From: Kiritimatiellia bacterium
Lineage (GTDB): Bacteria; Verrucomicrobiota; Kiritimatiellia; RFP12; UBA1067
Length of the DNA stretch: 64,000 bases
Assembly: GCA_017454745.1 (NCBI GenBank)
Contig: JAFTCL010000018.1
Coordinates: forward strand, 1 to 64,000
Reading direction: 5' to 3'
Position 1 is the first letter of the stretch; each line of letters opens with the position of its first letter. The notes beneath the pieces were generated by a model that was not told where the DNA came from, made no database searches, and worked only from the letters and a program-made list of their open reading frames with translations. The translations under genes and the position numbers were made by a program. Below are positions 34,586-42,692 of this stretch, piece by piece.

Positions 34586-35935
34586 TTAGTTGGCGTATTT
34601 GCCCTTGTCGGCGTTGGTGCCGGCGCCCTTGATGTAAATCTCGACGCGGCGGTTTTCAGGATTGCCGTTGATCAGATCCGGCTGGACTTTCGGCTTGTTG
34701 AAGCCGTAGCCGATCGCCGTCATCTTGTTGTTGGCGGCACCGTGGAGCGACAGGTAGTTCATGACCGCCTTGGCACGCTTCTCGGAGAGATCCTGGTTGT
34801 ACTTGGCCCCGGAGCCTTTCCGGCGGTCGGCGTGACCTTCGATCAGGGCGGTTGCGCCAGGATTGCGGTTCAAAGCGCGGGCCACCATGTCCAGCTCCTT
34901 GAAGTACTGCGGCTGGATAACGGTGCTGTCGTAGGTGAAGTTGATGTTGATCTCGAACAGCATCAGGTCATCGGAACCGTCCAGCGGGTTGGTGCCGTCA
35001 ACCTTGACTTCGTGACCGTCCGAAACTCCGCCCTTGTCGGTGTCGCGGTCGAGCGGGTTGGTCTTGTAGGTCTTAACCTCTTCGCCGTCCGTCAAACCGT
35101 CGAAATCGGTGTCGGCGTTGAGCGGGTCGGTCTTGTAGGTCTTGACCTCTTCGCCGTCCGTCAGGCCATCGCCGTCGGTATCGGGATTGCGCGGGTTGGT
35201 GCCAAGCCGGGCCTCTTCGGCGTCGGTCAGGCCGTCACCGTCGGAATCCAGCTCGGTCGTGGTTTGGACCACCGGGATAATCTCGGCCGGGCCGTCACTG
35301 GCAGAGGAAGAAGAATTACCGCTGCCGCCGAAACGGTAAACCACGCCGGCGTCGGCGGTGTAAATCATTTCGCAGGTCTGATCCCAAGCCATGTGGGTGC
35401 GGAAGTCGGCGCGCAGCGACCAGTCGTCGTTCAGGTGGTACATGGCGCCAACGCCCAGCCGGGGACCGAACGCGTCATTCTCGGAACCTTCGCACAGCAC
35501 GTCGCGATGGGCGCGATAGTAGCCCAAACCGGCGGCGATGTACGGATCGAAACGCTCATAGCGGTCGAAATGGAAGAGTCCGTCAATAAATACGCCGCGC
35601 ACGTTCTGCCCGCCATAGTTCCAGCAGGCTTCGTCGTCGCCGCCGCCACCGCAAGAAGAGCATCCGCCGCCGCTACCATCGGAATCGCCGTGGCGGTTGC
35701 CGGTGATGTTCGGGGCGCTGGAAACGCCGCCTTCAACCGAGAAATGGTCCGTTGCGTCCCAACCGAGCCGGAGCACCAGGTTCAGGCCCTCGTCAACGCA
35801 CTGATTGCCTTCAAAAAACATCATGCCCACGCCGGGGCTGACATACCACCGCGGGGAGTCGGTAAGCTCGCCCTCGGCGAAAGCCGTAGCAAAACCCGCT
35901 ACGCAAAGCGCTGCCGCAAAAATAATCCGCTTCAT
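34586..35935 (-). CDS. OmpA-family outer-membrane protein with TSP3 calcium repeats
   Basis: A 449-aa outer-membrane protein. A signal peptide (1-20) is followed by an eight-stranded-barrel-like domain (about 21-200) holding an unusual Gly/Ser/Cys-rich loop ([16 protein letters not shown]). Four thrombospondin type 3-like repeats come next ([19 protein letters not shown], two EEVKTYKT units, [13 protein letters not shown]), and then a peptidoglycan-binding OmpA C-terminal domain ([11 protein letters not shown]-type motif and NRRVEIYI). The TSP3 linker is expected to bind calcium and act as a spacer. The repeats are also visible as about 72-bp direct repeats in the DNA (35055-35210). It has its own promoter and terminator. 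Confidence 0.9.
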
Positions 35936-36124: not shown

Positions 36125-36154
36125 TTGACATCCATCCGCCTGAAATGTTATTAT
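36125..36154 (+). promoter_or_regulatory. Strong promoter of the 36-42 kb island
   Basis: A perfect TTGACA (36125-36130), 18-nt spacer and TATTAT (36149-36154). The first downstream ATG lies 9 nt after the -10 box. This is the only convincing promoter before the secreted metallopeptidase and duplicated genes. Confidence 0.65.
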
Positions 36155-36163
36155 ATTCATATT

Positions 36164-36289
36164 ATGAATGTGTTTTTTACAAATTCATTATTTGGATGTA
36201 TTGGTTTGTTCTCACACCTCACTGGAATAGGTGGTGGATTTTTATTTGGCTCTGAAATAATGACGATGAAGGAGTCTGGTTTTGCATAG
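36164..36289 (+). CDS. Possible 41-aa leaderless leader peptide
   Basis: The ATG at 36164 begins a 41-codon frame that ends at TAG 36287-36289. The product is hydrophobic and glycine-rich in the middle (SLFGCIGLFSHLTGIGGGF). The predicted transcription start is within a few bases of the ATG, so translation would be leaderless. Its end overlaps the TTG start of the next gene by 8 bp and contains that gene's AAGGAG site, which would allow coupling. It may equally be an untranslated leader; no homologue is known to me. Confidence 0.35.
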   Translation: MNVFFTNSLFGCIGLFSHLTGIGGGFLFGSEIMTMKESGFA

Positions 36290-39200
36290 GAACGATTTGT
36301 TAAAAAAATTGTTAAGGCAATTGATTTTGTGGACAATGACTGGAATGCTAGTCATCTACGCTGTTGATAAGCCTTCAAGGGGCGATAGTGGTGAACCCAG
36401 CCTACAGCCTCTTGCGGAAGGCGACACCAACAATGTTTCGCAAGAGGTGCGGGAGCTGACGGACTGCGAATACCTCGCCGGGGTGGCATGGCTGAATTGT
36501 GTGGCGGCGAATATAGCTTTGTTATCCGCGCCGACAAATGCGGCAGTGCGCGAACAATGGCGGATCCGTGGCGCCATGGACGAGAGTTTTGTGTTCACCA
36601 ACGCTGTCGTGCCGGGCGCGTGGGGCGGTAGGGCGCGGGTGTTTTCTTCAGGATCGGTCCGTACTTCCGGAGGGGCTAAATTTTCACCGCTGAACCATCC
36701 ACTTGGATTTGTGCCGGAAGTCAATTGGTATGCCGCCGGCGTAACAAGTTATTGGTGGGCGGCGGAATCGCCGACAAACCTGACCATGTGCTGGGAGAAC
36801 GCGCTTCCGGATTGGGACACCAACCGTGCGGTCACGGCGCAGTGCGGCTTTGGCACAAGTGGGCAATTCTTCTACCGTTATGACCTTCGGAATGTTCCCG
36901 CCGCCGAACGGGCGGGGTGGGCAAAACCGGTCGTCACATGCGTCAGCAACGCCCCCGCGTTGGACGGATATTTTCTGCCGGGTAATTTTTCAGCTCTGTT
37001 GGAGGAAACGGGCGCGGCTGAGCTGCGCGGTGTGGCGTTCGGCGACCTGCTGACCGGCGCAAGGGCTAACCGCGATTTTGACGGCGACGGGCTGTCGGAC
37101 TCTGAAGAACTGTTCCGGTTTGGCACCGACCCCCGTAACCCTGACACTGACGGGGATGGGCTGCTTGACGGGGAAGAGACCGACGCAGGAACGGATCCTT
37201 TGGCGTGGTTCAGTTTGGGAGCCACCAATGACCTAGTGGCGGTTCGCGGGTTCAGTGCCGACGGCGCGGTTCCGTCAGAGGTTCCCGGACGCGGCCGTCT
37301 GGTGGTTACTGCGCGTCTCTGCGGATCCGGCTTTAACGGCTGCGCAGCAATCCGCATCGGCGACGCCGTCATTCCAGTTATGCCGGAAACCAACACGACA
37401 TTTGGGGTCTCCATACCTTGTGACACCGACGTTGACATGATGCTTGTGACTGTCACGACGTTGTCGGAAGAGGCTTACGCCGATGTGCGGATCGACGCGC
37501 TCGATCCTTTGCTGATACGTGACCCGGACGAAAAGTTTGTCCGCCATGAAAACACCTACGGCCTGATCCCGGCGCATGGGCTGCTGAACAGTTGGGGGGA
37601 CTCGTGGACGTTGCGCATGCCAGCCTACCGCGTCACCCCGAATCACCTTTGCCGACACGAAGCTGGTACACTGCGGGTGGAGAGTAAAGATAATATGGTG
37701 CGATTCGCTTGGCCATTTGGTGAGACGGAGTACACTCCACAGATTGAATATGTGGCTACCGCCGGTAGTCGCGGCGCTGACATCGCGGTGGACTGTTTAC
37801 TTTCAGCGTACCCGCCGGAAGGGTGGATTGAAGTCTCTGCCCCTTATTACACCCATGCGCACGATTGCAACCCCGGCGATAAAACTCAAACGCCGGTTGC
37901 TCCGAAAGAACCTCCACTCATGGTGTGCGGATGCGCTGCCGGCTGTAACGGCGGTTGCAGTTGTCCGGAACCCAACTGCAATTGTGGAGATATGGAATGG
38001 CTGCCGGAGACCTATGTTGATTCCAGTGGGGCGACCAACAGTTTCGTTATTGTTGATTTGCCAGCTACCAACTTGATTGTAAATGGCGCAATAATGGTTG
38101 AGCCGATTACCCGCAGTGCTGACAATCCGGACAACTGTCAGCTGTGCGGCTGCCCGCGTGGGGGGAGTGGCGGCATTGGGGCATCGATTTACCGAGTTAC
38201 GCCGGGAATCAGTGTCGCGGCGGCGAACGGCGATGAGGGATGGAGCTTTGAGGTTTCCGGCGTCTCGGGAAGCACCAACGTCAATAGTGATGTGTTCGTC
38301 TATTACCGGGGGGGCGTTTTCTACCGCCGGCATGTCTCCGTGCTGGGAGGAGATATTTCGTTTGTAGAGACTATACCTGATGGTTCGGCAACCAATGTGC
38401 TGTGCTATGCCAATGTGCCGGTGCGTATAGGCACCGGAAACCTTCGTTTGCCGACTGGTTCTGTGGAGTTTGAGTTTAGCGGCTTTGGATGTTCGCTCGC
38501 GGTCTCCAACCGGGTAACCGGAATCTTTGACACATTTTTGGACGGAAGCAACACGCTTTTTGCGGTCAAAAGTATCGGCGAGTGGACAGACAATTATTGC
38601 GACACCAACGGAGTGGCAAGTGCAGAATTGTTACCGTTGGTCGGTGGACAGATGTCGCTGACGATGGGTTTCCAGCCGGATTCGGGGAATCCGGTTGTTC
38701 TGGACAAACTGGAGTTCACTGCGGTGTCGGTAGTGTTCGAGGCGGTAAATTGTTCGACCAACCGCAACGGTTTAGTGTACAATCCAGCGGCTGTGAAGAC
38801 TGGCGGGTACGGTGTGTTTCGGATTGAGTATTGGCCGGACGATACCGACATTGGCATATCGTGGTCAACATCCAGCACTGTCGCGGAGGTGTCGACTCAC
38901 TACCGTGGCCTAGGGGCGGATTATGCCGTGGTGCGCGGCAGGCATACCGGCGATTTTACTCTGACGGCGACACTTTCCAATATGCTTGGCGTGCCGGAAC
39001 ACCCACACATTAGAGCCGAAGTCCTGCCGGTAACGCAAACACCATTGCACTTTTACGTTATGCGGGATAATAGAGTGCCGATTGCCGATCCCACGACAAT
39101 TAGCAACATGGTTGCAGGTGTGAATCTAATTTATGCTCAAGCGGCAATGGAATTTTACGTGGCGGATATTTATGATATGGATGAGAATTTCTGCACCCGT

Positions 39201-39710
39201 TGGCCGCAGAAACCTAAAAGGCAAGATGTGTTAGAATTGTTCTCATCTACAAATGTTGTTGACGGATTGGAAATTTATGTAGTTACATCATTGCATGATA
39301 ATGTAGAAGGGTATGGAGCGCGAATTACATTGCCATCCGACAATAATGACAAATTAGGATTAGCGATAAAAATAACTGCGCGAGATTTAACGCAAGTGTT
39401 AGCTCATGAGATAGGACATAGTTGCGGACTTAACGATATTTATATTGGTACATCTGTAGAAATGTTGAAACGCCCTACACCAGCAACTATACAAAATGAA
39501 AATTGGACAGGAGGTTTCTCACGAGGGTATCTTCCAGAAGACCTTTGCCATCATAGTGTAGTGATGAGGTTGTTGATGCACGGCATCCATATAGGAAATC
39601 ATTGTGATATTCCGGTTATTGGTTTGAAAGGCGCTGAAAGTTATACAAGTGGTTTGTTCGGTTTGATATCGGTAGGCTTGGACAGCATGAACAGGAATCC
39701 GCACCATTAA
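36282..39710 (+). CDS. Large secreted protein with TSP3 repeats and C-terminal HEIGH metallopeptidase
   Basis: A 1,142-aa protein starting at TTG 36282, supported by AAGGAG seven bases upstream. An N-terminal hydrophobic segment (LLRQLILWTMTGMLVIYAV) should export it. TSP3-like calcium repeats lie at about 263-310 (DFDGDGLSDSEEL, DTDGDGLLDGEE). Two cysteine clusters follow, CGCAAGCNGGCSCPEPNCNC near 548-567 and CQLCGCPRG near 620, then beta-rich regions of unknown type. The C-terminus holds LAHEIGHSCGLND (zinc ligands H1042, H1046 and perhaps D1052), a metzincin-like peptidase site. From about 39050 the DNA becomes AT-rich while the first three quarters are GC-rich, so the peptidase domain may be a separate acquisition. 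Function is unknown. Confidence 0.75.
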   Translation: MHRNDLLKKLLRQLILWTMTGMLVIYAVDKPSRGDSGEPSLQPLAEGDTNNVSQEVRELTDCEYLAGVAWLNCVAANIALLSAPTNAAVREQWRIRGAMDESFVFTNAVVPGAWGGRARVFSSGSVRTSGGAKFSPLNHPLGFVPEVNWYAAGVTSYWWAAESPTNLTMCWENALPDWDTNRAVTAQCGFGTSGQFFYRYDLRNVPAAERAGWAKPVVTCVSNAPALDGYFLPGNFSALLEETGAAELRGVAFGDLLTGARANRDFDGDGLSDSEELFRFGTDPRNPDTDGDGLLDGEETDAGTDPLAWFSLGATNDLVAVRGFSADGAVPSEVPGRGRLVVTARLCGSGFNGCAAIRIGDAVIPVMPETNTTFGVSIPCDTDVDMMLVTVTTLSEEAYADVRIDALDPLLIRDPDEKFVRHENTYGLIPAHGLLNSWGDSWTLRMPAYRVTPNHLCRHEAGTLRVESKDNMVRFAWPFGETEYTPQIEYVATAGSRGADIAVDCLLSAYPPEGWIEVSAPYYTHAHDCNPGDKTQTPVAPKEPPLMVCGCAAGCNGGCSCPEPNCNCGDMEWLPETYVDSSGATNSFVIVDLPATNLIVNGAIMVEPITRSADNPDNCQLCGCPRGGSGGIGASIYRVTPGISVAAANGDEGWSFEVSGVSGSTNVNSDVFVYYRGGVFYRRHVSVLGGDISFVETIPDGSATNVLCYANVPVRIGTGNLRLPTGSVEFEFSGFGCSLAVSNRVTGIFDTFLDGSNTLFAVKSIGEWTDNYCDTNGVASAELLPLVGGQMSLTMGFQPDSGNPVVLDKLEFTAVSVVFEAVNCSTNRNGLVYNPAAVKTGGYGVFRIEYWPDDTDIGISWSTSSTVAEVSTHYRGLGADYAVVRGRHTGDFTLTATLSNMLGVPEHPHIRAEVLPVTQTPLHFYVMRDNRVPIADPTTISNMVAGVNLIYAQAAMEFYVADIYDMDENFCTRWPQKPKRQDVLELFSSTNVVDGLEIYVVTSLHDNVEGYGARITLPSDNNDKLGLAIKITARDLTQVLAHEIGHSCGLNDIYIGTSVEMLKRPTPATIQNENWTGGFSRGYLPEDLCHHSVVMRLLMHGIHIGNHCDIPVIGLKGAESYTSGLFGLISVGLDSMNRNPHH

Positions 39711-39717
39711 GGAGGCG
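39674..39717 (+). repeat. 44-bp direct repeat, copy 1 (duplication scar)
   Basis: It covers the last 12 codons and stop of the metallopeptidase gene and the GGAGG of the next gene. Forty-two of 44 bases are repeated at 40764-40807 before the paralogue. Confidence 0.9.
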
Positions 39718-39721
39718 TATC

Positions 39722-40744
39722 ATGACAAAATTATTTTTTTTAACGATAACTTATTTATCAGTAACGATTGGAATTGTTGATGCCGAATGTTCTTTTGAAT
39801 CTCTGGTTTCTCACATATCTAGCGGGATTGGCACGATTGATGATACAGAGTCGTTTGAGGGACATATAGTTTGGCTTTCGGAAAATCAGATCGATCGCGC
39901 AATGTTAAGGAAAGCTGCATGGCAGATTTTTGAAGAAAGCACGAAATTAATAAATAATCCTAATACTACAGATTATCTTCGTTATGCCGGTGAGACTGGA
40001 CAATCAATTGCGATTGATTATTTGGCACTTTGTTCTGACGAGACCGATTGTAAGAAATTAGAAAAAATATATCGGAACAATAAATGTAATGATAATAGTA
40101 GGATTGATGCTTTTTTTGCGCATCTTTTTTCTGTAGGGGAGGATGATGCGGAACAGGTGGTCGATCAGTTGTCGGACTATGAGGTGTTCCCCCGCCAATT
40201 GCGACTGGCATTTTATAACAGTGGTGTCCGGCTGGCGTACGAATGGGCAACGCCGCAAAAAAAGGCGGCAATCGCCAGTGCATTCAAAAGAGTAATTGCT
40301 GGGGAGAACGATTACCGCATGTTTATCACCTGCGACAGTTTGATGAAGTCGTTTTTTAAAGACTACGCCAAGTCGAGGTTCCGATTGGAGTTTATCCAGC
40401 AGTTTGATCCACCCGCAGACAACGAAGCACTGCGCCAAGCGTTAAATCGAGCGATTGCGGAGTGTACCAACCCCAAAGTAAAAGTGGAACCGCCGGTTAT
40501 CACAATCCATAACTATCCGCCATACATAAGCTATGAGGAGACGGTGCTGGCCGGGAAGGGTATTCCTGAAATTAAGAAAATCGCTGATATGTTTGTTCAA
40601 TTCGAAAAAGGAGCGGTCGGTGCGACGCAGACAACAGAGAAAACACATTCTGATCGTCATTGGTTTCTTTGGGTTGCAGCAACTGGGGTTGGGACTGTGG
40701 CTATTTGCGTGATTGTATCCTTGTTCACTCGGAAGGGGAAATAA
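39722..40744 (+). CDS. Membrane-anchored hypothetical protein, paralogue A
   Basis: A 340-aa protein of unknown family. It has an N-terminal signal peptide (MTKLFFLTITYLSVTIGIVDA), a helical, extracytoplasmic body and a single C-terminal membrane helix (WVAATGVGTVAICVIVSLF) ending in a basic RKGK tail. Shared blocks with the next gene include ID..LLR.AAW, GETGQSI, FFAHLFS, AIAECTNPKVKV and YPPYISYEET.LAGKGIPEI; identity is roughly 40-45% by eye. The DNA is AT-rich in the first half compared with the surroundings. The strong GGAGG site is shared with its duplicate. Genetic linkage to the secreted peptidase suggests a partner or substrate, not more. Confidence 0.75.
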   Translation: MTKLFFLTITYLSVTIGIVDAECSFESLVSHISSGIGTIDDTESFEGHIVWLSENQIDRAMLRKAAWQIFEESTKLINNPNTTDYLRYAGETGQSIAIDYLALCSDETDCKKLEKIYRNNKCNDNSRIDAFFAHLFSVGEDDAEQVVDQLSDYEVFPRQLRLAFYNSGVRLAYEWATPQKKAAIASAFKRVIAGENDYRMFITCDSLMKSFFKDYAKSRFRLEFIQQFDPPADNEALRQALNRAIAECTNPKVKVEPPVITIHNYPPYISYEETVLAGKGIPEIKKIADMFVQFEKGAVGATQTTEKTHSDRHWFLWVAATGVGTVAICVIVSLFTRKGK

Positions 40745-40763
40745 TCCACTCTGTCGTATGTAT

Positions 40764-40807
40764 AGGCTTGGACAGTATGAACCGGAATCCGCACCATTAA
40801 GGAGGCG
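40764..40807 (+). repeat. 44-bp direct repeat, copy 2 (orphan gene tail)
   Basis: This intergenic stretch repeats the end of the metallopeptidase gene, stop codon and ribosome-binding site, with two mismatches. There is no gene reading into it, so it is the scar of a tandem duplication. Confidence 0.9.
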
Positions 40808-40809
40808 AA

Positions 40810-41838
40810 ATGAAAAAACTACTATTTATAATATCATTTGTCGCAATCACCTTGTCTCGTGCTATTGGCTACGAAGGTGATTTTGATGATGTTGTTTCCC
40901 GTTTAAGCGCAATGCGTGGGATGATTGACGCAAGTTTCATTGAAGACAGAATAATTTGGCTTTCAGATAATAAGATTGACCGCAATTTGTTGCGTATGGC
41001 GGCATGGAAGGTTTTTAACGACAGCACCCAATTACGCCAGAAAGTTAATGCAACGGATTCAGAATTGTATTGTGGAGAAACCGGGCAATCGATAATGCTT
41101 AACATATTAGCGTCTTGCGCCGTTCCTAGCGATTGGACAATTTTTGAATCCATGTATTTAAATCATTCTGAAGATAAAAATGTCCGCTTTAACGCTTTTT
41201 TTGCGCATCTCTTTTCTACAAATGCAGACAATGTTGAATCGGTGATTATGCGGCTGTCGAATCATGAAGTATTTCCAATTTCGTTACGACAATATTTGTA
41301 TAGTAGTGGGATATGCCTAGTGTACCAATGGTCTGTCCCTGATAAAAGAAAAGCCATTGCGGCTGCATTTAAGAATGTAATCAAGTATGAGGGTGATGAT
41401 AAGTGGATGTTTCTTATTTGCGACGATATGCTAAAATTCCTTTACGAGGATTATGCCCGGTCTGAATATCGGCGGGATTTTATCGGACAGTTTCTAAAGA
41501 CTCCTTTTAATGAGAATGAATCCAAACGTCTAAAACCATATTTTGAACAGGCCATCGCCGAATGCACCAATCCAAAAGTTAAAGTTAAACCATCTTTGGA
41601 AAAGGACTACCTTTATCCACCATACATCAGCTATGAGGAGACGATACTGGCTGGCAAAGGGATTCCGGAGATTAAGAAAATGGTTGATGAGTTCCGAAAC
41701 GGCGGCGACGTGCTGCAGGAAACAGAAAAAACCAAGCAAACTTTGTCTGCGTGGACTATTTCAACAACGACGGCTTTCGTTATTGTTGTCGTGGTTGGGG
41801 TGATAGCTGTTTGGAGGAAGATACGAAAAAGGGAATAG
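40810..41838 (+). CDS. Membrane-anchored hypothetical protein, paralogue B
   Basis: A 342-aa tandem paralogue of the preceding gene with the same layout: signal peptide (MKKLLFIISFVAITLSRAIG), helical body, C-terminal helix (TTTAFVIVVVVGVIAVW) and a basic tail RKIRKRE. The gene is AT-rich throughout. The two proteins keep a strongly conserved segment near residue 265-285 (YPPYISYEET, LAGKGIPEIKK), the best candidate for a functional site. Sequence between is well diverged, so the duplication is old or under diversifying change. Function unknown. Confidence 0.75.
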   Translation: MKKLLFIISFVAITLSRAIGYEGDFDDVVSRLSAMRGMIDASFIEDRIIWLSDNKIDRNLLRMAAWKVFNDSTQLRQKVNATDSELYCGETGQSIMLNILASCAVPSDWTIFESMYLNHSEDKNVRFNAFFAHLFSTNADNVESVIMRLSNHEVFPISLRQYLYSSGICLVYQWSVPDKRKAIAAAFKNVIKYEGDDKWMFLICDDMLKFLYEDYARSEYRRDFIGQFLKTPFNENESKRLKPYFEQAIAECTNPKVKVKPSLEKDYLYPPYISYEETILAGKGIPEIKKMVDEFRNGGDVLQETEKTKQTLSAWTISTTTAFVIVVVVGVIAVWRKIRKRE

Positions 41839-42692
41839 TTTGCATTTGCCTCAGCACGTTGGGGTTTTCGCTGATGGCCATGTTCGTGCGGATGGCGGAT
41901 AATTGCGGCGAGCCGCTTCCCGCCATACAAAAGGCGTTTTTCCGCAATTTGGTCGCCTGCGCCATTGCCTGTTCCGTTCTTTTCCGTAACAAAGCCGGTT
42001 TGTCCGGTCTTAGTTTCGGGCTGCAACCCCGGCAATGGATGGATCTGGTTCTGCGCTCGTCTTTCGGCACGGCCGGGATTTTCGCCAACTTCTACGCCAT
42101 TTCCCATATCCCGATTGCGGACGCGATCGCGCTCAACAAAACCGCGCCGTTTTTCACGCTGGTGTTCAGCTGGCTGCTGGTCGGCGAACGGATGGGAATG
42201 CGGCAGACCTTGTGCGTGCTGGGGGCTTTTGCCGGGGCGTTGTTCGTTATCAAACCCGGACTGTCGGGAAGTCTCACCCTGCCGTCGGCGGTGGGTCTGC
42301 TCAGCGGGTTCTGCGCCGGGGCGGCGTACGCTTTCCTTCACCGGTTGGGAAAGGCGGGGGTCAACGGGGCTTTCATCATCCTGTTCTTCTCGGCATTTTC
42401 CTGCGCCGCCTGCGTCCCGTTCATCGCGGCCGATTACCATGCCATGAATCCGGCGCAACTGCTAGCCTTAACCGGCGCCGGCGCCTGCGCGGCAATCGGG
42501 CAGTTCGGCATCACCTGGGCGTACCGGTTGGCGGAACCCCGGCAGGTGGCGGTGTTCGATTATTCCGGCATCATCTTTTCGGCGATTCTCGGATTCGCGG
42601 CGTTCGGACAAATCCCGGACGGCTGGAGTTTCCTCGGTTTTGCCGTAATCATCGCGATGGCGGCGGTGCTGAACCGGCGCAAAACGAAATGA
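41811..42692 (+). CDS. EamA/DMT-superfamily transporter
   Basis: A 293-aa integral membrane protein with ten hydrophobic helices in two EamA repeats, of the drug/metabolite transporter family. Substrate is unknown. The start is placed at TTG 41811, preceded by GGGGTGAT, because it directly precedes the first helix (GIVCICLSTLGFSLMAMFVR) and gives the usual length; the ATG at 41751 would add 20 polar residues inside the upstream gene. It overlaps paralogue B by 28 bp, which implies coupling, but the return to GC-rich sequence suggests it belongs to the core genome. Confidence 0.85.
   Translation: MEEDTKKGIVCICLSTLGFSLMAMFVRMADNCGEPLPAIQKAFFRNLVACAIACSVLFRNKAGLSGLSFGLQPRQWMDLVLRSSFGTAGIFANFYAISHIPIADAIALNKTAPFFTLVFSWLLVGERMGMRQTLCVLGAFAGALFVIKPGLSGSLTLPSAVGLLSGFCAGAAYAFLHRLGKAGVNGAFIILFFSAFSCAACVPFIAADYHAMNPAQLLALTGAGACAAIGQFGITWAYRLAEPRQVAVFDYSGIIFSAILGFAAFGQIPDGWSFLGFAVIIAMAAVLNRRKTK

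What the first reader, a model, noticed from the sequence alone, without database searches (positions are those of the whole stretch)
36125..41838. Uncharacterised island: secreted metallopeptidase plus duplicated membrane-anchored proteins
One strong promoter drives a 1,142-aa secreted protein with TSP3 repeats, two cysteine clusters and a HEIGH site, followed by two paralogous proteins with a signal peptide, helical body, C-terminal helix and basic tail. I recognise none of the pair, and they conserve a YPPYISYEET...LAGKGIPEI block. The unit behaves as one operon and is compositionally different from its neighbours. It could be a surface protease with dedicated anchors or a contact-dependent system.
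Basis: partly seen in the sequence, partly recalled or inferred. Interest (0 to 1): 0.75.

Follow-up and report, generated by a model that had tools for sequence, protein, structure and literature searches.

The report
Toxin–immunity cassette on conserved trunk
This stretch most likely encodes a modular bacterial toxin whose removable tip is a zinc protease, followed by two duplicated periplasmic proteins that probably protect the cell from it; related bacteria carry the same kind of trunk with other toxin tips.

Summary
In detail: a 1,142-aa exported protein with TSP3 repeats, Cys clusters and a HEIGH site, followed by two paralogues (signal peptide, helical body, C-terminal helix, basic tail). 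The "anchor" reading is not supported. The evidence fits a polymorphic-toxin locus: a trunk with a metzincin tip. In genome G037 three proteins share about 930 residues of this trunk family, then end in different tips; elsewhere the trunk domain precedes Rhs repeats, a Tae4 amidase or an alpha/beta hydrolase. The paralogues behave as immunity proteins. A tip or tip remnant lies upstream at 18 of 20 testable loci; tandem copies are separated by tip remnants (here a 44-nt scar); the closest held relative keeps one after losing the toxin; 8 of 25 lack the anchor. G+C drops inside the gene at the tip. A secreted accessory gene of about 200 aa, without a convincing Pfam match, precedes 29 of 43 testable trunk genes. 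T6SS VipB was found in 0 of 8 genomes, so delivery is unknown. The window's trunk is a diverged family member, and no other tip was seen in its own genome. Toxicity and protection are inferred. New variant (trunk, accessory, immunity family) of a known kind.

The parts
36125..36154 (+). sigma-70-like promoter (TTGACA-18-TATTAT); the region is shared with the sister genome, where it precedes EamA
   Evidence: 11 of 12 match; G001 aligned up to 36150
36151..41822 (+). extent of the island, by comparison with sister genome G001, which has 38 bp here between the OmpA-like and EamA genes
36282..38681 (+). trunk of the toxin (residues 1-800): N-terminal transmembrane segment, trunk-N domain, TSP3 repeats, Cys clusters
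   Evidence: trunk-N profile A3 found in 88 of 345 class genomes
36321..36365 (+). hydrophobic segment (residues 14-28), signal anchor or signal peptide
   Evidence: sequence
36450..37031 (+). trunk-N domain used as a row of profile A3
37074..37208 (+). TSP3 repeat region (residues 265-309)
37866..38153 (+). two cysteine clusters (residues 529-570 and 619-624), part of the trunk
38682..39707 (+). tip (residues 801-1142): Ig-like domain then metzincin peptidase; a trunk-less copy in the same genome (C59) starts at residue 808
39405..39437 (+). zinc-binding motif HEIGHSCGLND; candidate Met-turn LMHGI at 39573-39587
39674..39717 (+). 3' end of the toxin gene plus ribosome-binding site, first copy of the 44-nt repeat
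   Evidence: 42 of 44 identical to 40764-40807
39722..40744 (+). immunity-like paralogue 1 (340 aa): signal peptide, helical body, C-terminal TM helix (40667-40723), basic tail
40764..40807 (+). tandem-duplication scar: copy of the last codons of the toxin tip and its ribosome-binding site in front of paralogue 2
40810..41838 (+). immunity-like paralogue 2 (342 aa), predicted all-helical solenoid, TM helix (41755-41811); stop overlaps the EamA 5' region

Best explanation
The locus is a polymorphic toxin-immunity unit. The large protein is an exported trunk (N-terminal transmembrane segment, trunk-N domain, TSP3 repeats, Cys clusters) carrying an exchangeable C-terminal tip: an Ig-like domain plus a metzincin-type zinc peptidase. 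The tip is predicted to enter the envelope of a neighbouring cell and cleave proteins there. The two downstream paralogues are cognate, periplasm-facing immunity proteins. They would bind and block the peptidase on the producer's own side; in this subfamily they are held at the inner membrane by a C-terminal helix. The pair arose by tandem duplication of 'last codons of the tip + immunity gene', giving a small immunity array that can cover incoming or replaced tips. Shown by sequence: the modular architecture, tip swapping in relatives, the adjacent gene, orphan cassettes, tandem scars, toxin loss with immunity retention; by prediction: the metzincin fold. Inferred: toxicity, target compartment, inhibition of the peptidase, delivery.
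For: Tip swapping: in genome G037 L137, L138 and L142 share 48-100% per 50-residue block to about residue 930, then 2-22% (a final two-residue block aside), with different tips. In G064, L033 (this peptidase tip) and L093 (hydrolase-like tip, by eye) share an 87%-identical trunk-N domain. Known toxin modules behind the same trunk domain: RHS repeats (L094; L149) and a Tae4 amidase tip (L149, PF14113 1e-20). Variable tip: C74 against C19 in this genome, N domain 61%, TSP3 85%, middle 56%, tip 38%. G+C falls at the tip. Tip or tip remnant directly upstream of the paralogue family at 18 of 20 testable loci. At 20 further tip loci from 20 other genomes, 18 of 18 complete downstream genes have ATG, a hydrophobic N-terminus and at least 200 aa, against 28 of 111 control genes, at least five of which are trunk or tip genes themselves. 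Orphan tip with paralogue (L022) and arrays tip-immunity-tip remnant(-immunity) (L078, L079, L101); 42-of-44-nt scar here, a like scar at C19 by eye. Sister genome G001 keeps one intact paralogue at the C19 site while its toxin is internally deleted and its accessory gene has a stop. Tip and paralogue distances correlate (n=15, r=0.795, p=0.0001). Metzincin fold: VIA Z 15.8 to 1wni, 15.7 to ulilysin.
Against: No experiment shows toxicity or protection. The window's trunk-N domain is only about 20% identical to the trunks on which tip swapping is seen (direct BLAST support down to 9e-9), and in its own genome both trunk copies found carry the metzincin tip. In the L033/L093 pair similarity already falls from residue ~350, well before the tip. 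C74 against C19 also dips in the Cys-cluster region (40-46%). The distance correlation is expected from common descent too. The strict paralogue profile reaches 9 of 345 genomes against 54 of 345 with the tip; elsewhere the downstream genes match it weakly (1e-8 to 1e-3) or not at all. Two of 20 testable paralogue loci have no tip beside them (L077, L087). No delivery machine was identified: VipB in 0 of 8; SprA search uninformative. The trunk's N-terminal segment could leave the protein tethered in the producer's own membrane. L033 shows no G+C drop at the tip.
Confidence: 0.85

Rival explanations
1. A secreted or surface metallopeptidase with dedicated membrane anchors or chaperones: the paralogues hold or fold the enzyme at the membrane for nutrient use or surface processing.
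For: Fixed gene order and C-terminal TM helices in 17 of 25 testable members; membrane-bound helical foldases for secreted enzymes are known (recalled).
Against: 8 of 25 lack the anchor; two to three diverged copies per toxin at several loci; intact copy kept without a toxin in G001; trunk domain shared with RHS, Tae4 and hydrolase proteins; tip remnants between copies.
Confidence: 0.07
2. A self-directed defence or suicide device: the trunk stays tethered in the producer's own periplasm and the paralogues hold the peptidase inactive until stress or phage attack releases it.
For: N-terminal TM segment and no exporter identified; the inhibitors face the same compartment.
Against: No PADLOC match for the window's three proteins; tip polymorphism, orphan cassettes and immunity arrays are the pattern of between-cell conflict; the Tae4 tip is an interbacterial effector type by name.
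Confidence: 0.05
3. A host-directed or nutrient protease (fragilysin-like) whose neighbours merely prevent self-digestion.
For: Tip resembles adamalysins and fragilysin by profile and fold; relatives are thought to live in animal guts (recalled).
Against: The trunk family also carries a cell-wall amidase and a hydrolase tip; tip diverges faster than trunk.
Confidence: 0.03

Closest known systems
Polymorphic toxin systems (Zhang et al. 2012, PMC3482391; abstract, passages and section 17 seen)
   Same: Trunk with exchangeable C-terminal toxin, immunity gene downstream, tandem immunity arrays; metallopeptidase tips and HEAT-repeat immunity proteins are both listed there.
   Different: The trunk-N domain, accessory gene and this immunity family have no convincing Pfam match; the metzincin tip was not compared with that paper's Tox-MPTase1-5 alignments; delivery route unknown.
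Rhs toxins
   Same: Some trunk relatives (L094, L149) carry RHS repeats before the tip.
   Different: The window protein has no RHS repeat by Pfam.
CDI (CdiA/CdiI)
   Same: Large exported protein, variable tip, small immunity gene, orphan tip-immunity modules (last point recalled; only abstract starts seen).
   Different: No two-partner secretion domain found by Pfam; the immunity-like proteins have signal peptides.
Metzincin peptidases: adamalysin, ulilysin, mirolysin, fragilysin
   Same: Predicted fold, HExxHxxGxxD, downstream Met.
   Different: 9-17% identity in the aligned rows; Pfam reprolysin matches stay below the gathering score; here a tip behind an Ig-like domain.
HEAT-like alpha-solenoids
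   Same: Predicted all-helical solenoid body, Z up to 9.1.
   Different: No Pfam HEAT match for the window paralogues; the scores are within the range the tool gives for unrelated helical repeats.

Membership tests
Polymorphic toxin system | Same trunk with different C-terminal tips | tested here: met
   L137/L138/L142 in one genome; L033/L093 share the trunk-N domain. Shown in relatives; both trunk copies in G000 carry the same kind of tip
Polymorphic toxin system | Dedicated small gene directly downstream of the tip | tested here: met
   18 of 20 testable loci; 18 of 18 complete downstream genes at 20 further loci, control 28 of 111
Polymorphic toxin system | Orphan tip-immunity cassettes and immunity arrays | tested here: met
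   L022, L076, L078, L079, L101; scars
Polymorphic toxin system | Recognised toxin domains on the same trunk | tested here: met
   Tae4 PF14113 1e-20; RHS
Polymorphic toxin system | Tip is toxic and its neighbour neutralises it | not testable with these tools
   needs bench work
T6SS effector | T6SS sheath protein in the genome | tested here: not met
   VipB PF05943: 0 of 8 genomes (incomplete assemblies), E. coli control positive
T9SS substrate | SprA translocon in the genome | tested here: inconclusive
   0 of 8, but no control rang
CDI (CdiA) | Two-partner secretion domain in the protein | tested here: not met
   Pfam scan of the window protein
Rhs | RHS repeats in the window protein | tested here: not met
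   present in trunk relatives
Metzincin | HExxHxxGxxD, downstream Met, metzincin fold | tested here: met
   (prediction)
Reprolysin/M12B | Pfam gathering score | tested here: not met
   24.2 bits against 27 (PF13688), 21 against 22.4 (PF13582)
HEAT-repeat immunity proteins | HEAT solenoid fold | tested here: inconclusive
   Z up to 9.1; no significant match
Tox-MPTase1-5 | Match to these published families | not tested
   alignments not held; text read only

The most novel reading that the evidence does not exclude
This bacterial class carries its own polymorphic-toxin delivery system, independent of T6SS and two-partner secretion: a secreted accessory gene of about 200 aa plus a membrane-tethered trunk, onto which peptidase, amidase, hydrolase and Rhs tips are plugged, with periplasm-facing helical immunity proteins.
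Probability: 0.4. Interest if true: 0.8.

Novelty: new variant of a known kind. Interest (0 to 1): 0.62.

Why it matters
It gives a testable reading of a gene pair that matches no named family, and points to a class-wide arsenal: trunk in 88 and accessory in 88 of 345 class genomes, 76 shared. If the accessory and the trunk's membrane segment form a delivery route, it would be one for which no machine has been found in the genomes tested. Metzincin tips paired with periplasm-facing, partly membrane-anchored solenoid inhibitors would be an unusual toxin-inhibitor pairing.

Tried and rejected
Dedicated anchors: not supported, since the C-terminal helix is missing in 8 of 25 testable members (a hydropathy scan of 26 strict-family rows; L083 dropped because the contig ends; fragments L030, L077, L081 and L088 not examined; L080, counted as lacking it, has an in-frame stop before that region). 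Known family for the paralogues: none convincing; no PDB sequence relative of note (best E 0.1), no Foldseek PDB match at E<=0.001. T6SS delivery: VipB in 0 of 8. T9SS: uninformative. Plasmid-borne relatives of the toxin: no match. Insertion against deletion at the window locus: not resolved; the sister's 38 bp may keep a trace of the paralogue end, which would favour loss there, but this is an eye comparison. Literature: searches listed no paper on this trunk in these organisms; they cover open-licence full texts, and I saw only the listed rows.

Limits: the class searches score at most 6 to 9 candidates per genome, so copy counts are lower bounds. Profiles A1, A3, A5 and A6 contain some of the loci they then find. 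Many genomes are fragmented MAGs. The class name Kiritimatiellae is recalled; NCBI places the named relative UBA1200 only in Verrucomicrobiota, unclassified. NCBIfam and PADLOC were run on one accessory protein each. In one search the start codon was chosen by a score that favours a hydrophobic N-terminus, hence control 100, which holds one region twice (L020 and L030). Of 54 genomes with the tip, 20 were sampled; 21 were never looked at.
Full report
What is there. The 1,142-aa protein has TSP3 repeats (Pfam 2.4e-12), weak reprolysin matches below the gathering score, Cys clusters at residues 529-570 and 619-624, and HEIGHSCGLND at 1042-1052. The two paralogues match nothing significant in Pfam, NCBIfam or PADLOC. 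The genome is a 3.86-Mb assembly in 83 contigs. A named close relative is the Verrucomicrobia MAG UBA1200.

Three copies in one genome. G000 holds three such loci. C74 is the window. C19 has a full toxin and three paralogues plus a 192-aa gene. C59 has only the last 335 residues of the toxin, starting at residue 808, followed by one paralogue. Between C74 and C19 the N domain is 61% identical, TSP3 85%, the middle 56% and the tip 38%. In 50-residue blocks identity is 50-82% up to residue 550, 40-58% from 551 to 750 and 20-45% beyond, so the fall begins in the Cys-cluster region. G+C is 56.8% in the window's trunk but 40.8% in its catalytic domain and 43.0 and 40.2% in the paralogues; C19 is similar (54.1, 36.2, 39.7-42.8). 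L083 and L076 also drop; L033 does not.

The sister genome. In G001, of the same genus, the site between the OmpA-like and EamA genes holds 38 bp instead of the island (window 36150 and 41823 against L089 6398 and 6437). At the C19 equivalent G001 has lost most of the toxin; the remnant and the accessory gene carry stops, yet a 336-aa paralogue is intact. At the C59 equivalent only fragments remain.

Family-wide order. A profile of 11 paralogues finds 31 matches in 9 of 345 class genomes, at 24 loci. A tip or tip remnant lies directly upstream in 18 (the two in G001 are remnants); 4 are cut by contig ends there (L032, which has a tip fragment downstream instead, L075, L081, L086); 2 have none (L077, L087). 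So 18 of 20 testable. Copies are separated by tip remnants of varied length: a 44-nt repeat here (42 identical), a similar scar at C19 by eye, 87 aa in L078 and, after its paralogue, 235 aa in L079; in L101 a 217-aa tip piece lies between two similar-looking genes. L076 has three paralogues in a row, and L087 a 617-aa protein with two paralogue domains.

Other tips on the trunk. The trunk-N profile is in 88 of 345 class genomes, far wider than the paralogue. In G037, L137, L138 and L142 are alike to about residue 930 and then drop to background, with different tips and different downstream genes. In G064, L033 and L093 share an 87%-identical trunk-N domain but end in the peptidase and in a hydrolase-like tip (the latter by eye); their similarity already fades from residue ~350. 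L094 and L149 carry RHS repeats, and L149 ends in a Tae4 amidase (1e-20). L150 has an alpha/beta hydrolase tip (1e-5, just above the Pfam cut-off). The trunk proteins with a complete end are each followed closely by a gene that looks exported, except L140, which has 193 nt left on its contig. The window's own trunk-N is a distant member (about 20% identical to L033; BLAST to 9e-9), and no other tip was seen on it in G000.

The metzincin tip in general. The tip profile is in 54 of 345 genomes. I took the best tip of each of 20 further genomes in rank order, skipping the nine paralogue genomes and four already seen; that gave 21 tip genes. All 21 are followed, with the start -1 to 26 nt after the last sense codon, by an ATG gene with a hydrophobic N-terminus; three are cut by the contig end and the 18 complete ones have 206-480 aa. 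All 18 meet the rule that 28 of 111 control genes meet, at least five of those being trunk or tip genes. Some of these downstream genes match the wider paralogue profile weakly (1e-8 to 1e-3), so one superfamily is likely but not proven.

Structure. Paralogue 2 is predicted with mean pLDDT 90.6 as a helical solenoid with a signal helix and a C-terminal membrane helix. PDB comparison gives only HEAT-like and other solenoids at Z up to 9.1, which is not decisive. The tip (pLDDT 88.5, pTM 0.88) is an Ig-like domain plus a metzincin: Z 15.8 to 1wni and 15.7 to ulilysin, 39 Foldseek matches at E<=0.001, most of them metzincins. In 23 aligned tips, some partial, E243, H246, D252 and M299 are invariant and H242 nearly so. 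The C-terminal membrane helix is present in 17 of 25 testable paralogues.

Accessory gene. A gene of about 200 aa with a signal-like N-terminus lies directly upstream of the trunk gene in 29 of 43 testable trunk ORFs; 14 lack it there, including the window, and 10 were untestable. It is in 88 of 345 class genomes, 76 shared with the trunk (Fisher p 5e-50, not corrected for phylogeny). None of 18 members reaches a convincing Pfam family (best E 0.0022). All 20 positives in a 387-genome phylum sample belong to the same class; how many of the 387 lie outside it is not listed. In G000 the only copy found is at C19, so the window unit would depend on it in trans.

Mechanism. The simplest account is a polymorphic toxin: an exported trunk presents a metzincin tip that attacks envelope proteins of a rival, while the paralogues inhibit the peptidase in the producer's periplasm. 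Their membrane helix would place them beside the trunk's own membrane segment but is dispensable in relatives. Duplicated paralogues can serve as a reserve against changed tips, as proposed for polyimmunity loci (PMC3482391, passages seen). Toxicity, inhibition and delivery remain inferred. VipB was found in 0 of 8 genomes.

Comparison with print. PMC3482391 (passages and section 17 read) lists several zincin-like toxin tips, HEAT-repeat immunity proteins and an immunity protein with a signal peptide, so the kind is known. For orphan tip-immunity modules and orphan immunity I saw only listings with abstract starts (PMC3150448, PMC10539506). My searches listed no report of this trunk, accessory or immunity family; that covers open-licence papers only.

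Noticed in passing
window 34586-35935 (-): OmpA-like protein with its own TSP3 repeats next to the island; part of its TSP3 DNA is 74% identical, on the opposite strand, to the toxin's TSP3 stretch.
   Followed up: no
window 41751-42692 (+): EamA transporter gene whose 5' region overlaps the stop of paralogue 2; by eye its start codon is unclear both here and in sister G001.
   Followed up: partly
L021:3208-3783 (-): Accessory gene family (~200 aa, signal-like N-terminus), directly upstream of trunk toxin genes in 29 of 43 testable cases, without a convincing Pfam match.
   Followed up: yes
L087:6808-8658 (-): 617-aa protein made of two paralogue domains with one C-terminal membrane helix and no tip nearby: a candidate polyimmunity protein.
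   Followed up: partly
L142:890-1660 (-): Gene after a trunk toxin encodes an SNase-like domain (1.9e-7) with a hydrophobic C-terminal stretch; a 171-aa gene in L100 looks similar by eye. Odd as an immunity protein.
   Followed up: no
L093, L150, L152 and L154: Hydrolase-like tips are each followed by an exported-looking gene; of the three scanned, L093 and L150 give weak CarboxypepD_reg matches (5.6e-5, 2.5e-5) and L154 0.065, all below the cut-off: possibly a second recurrent toxin-immunity pair.
   Followed up: partly
G000:C74:73888-74064, outside the window: TSP3 match inside a 3,516-aa ORF on the same contig, with a 3,514-aa counterpart in G001; not examined.
   Followed up: no
L137:3248-4747 (-): Tip with NGHG and NTCDSA stretches that look caspase- or gingipain-like by eye (recalled motif; no Pfam match).
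   Followed up: no
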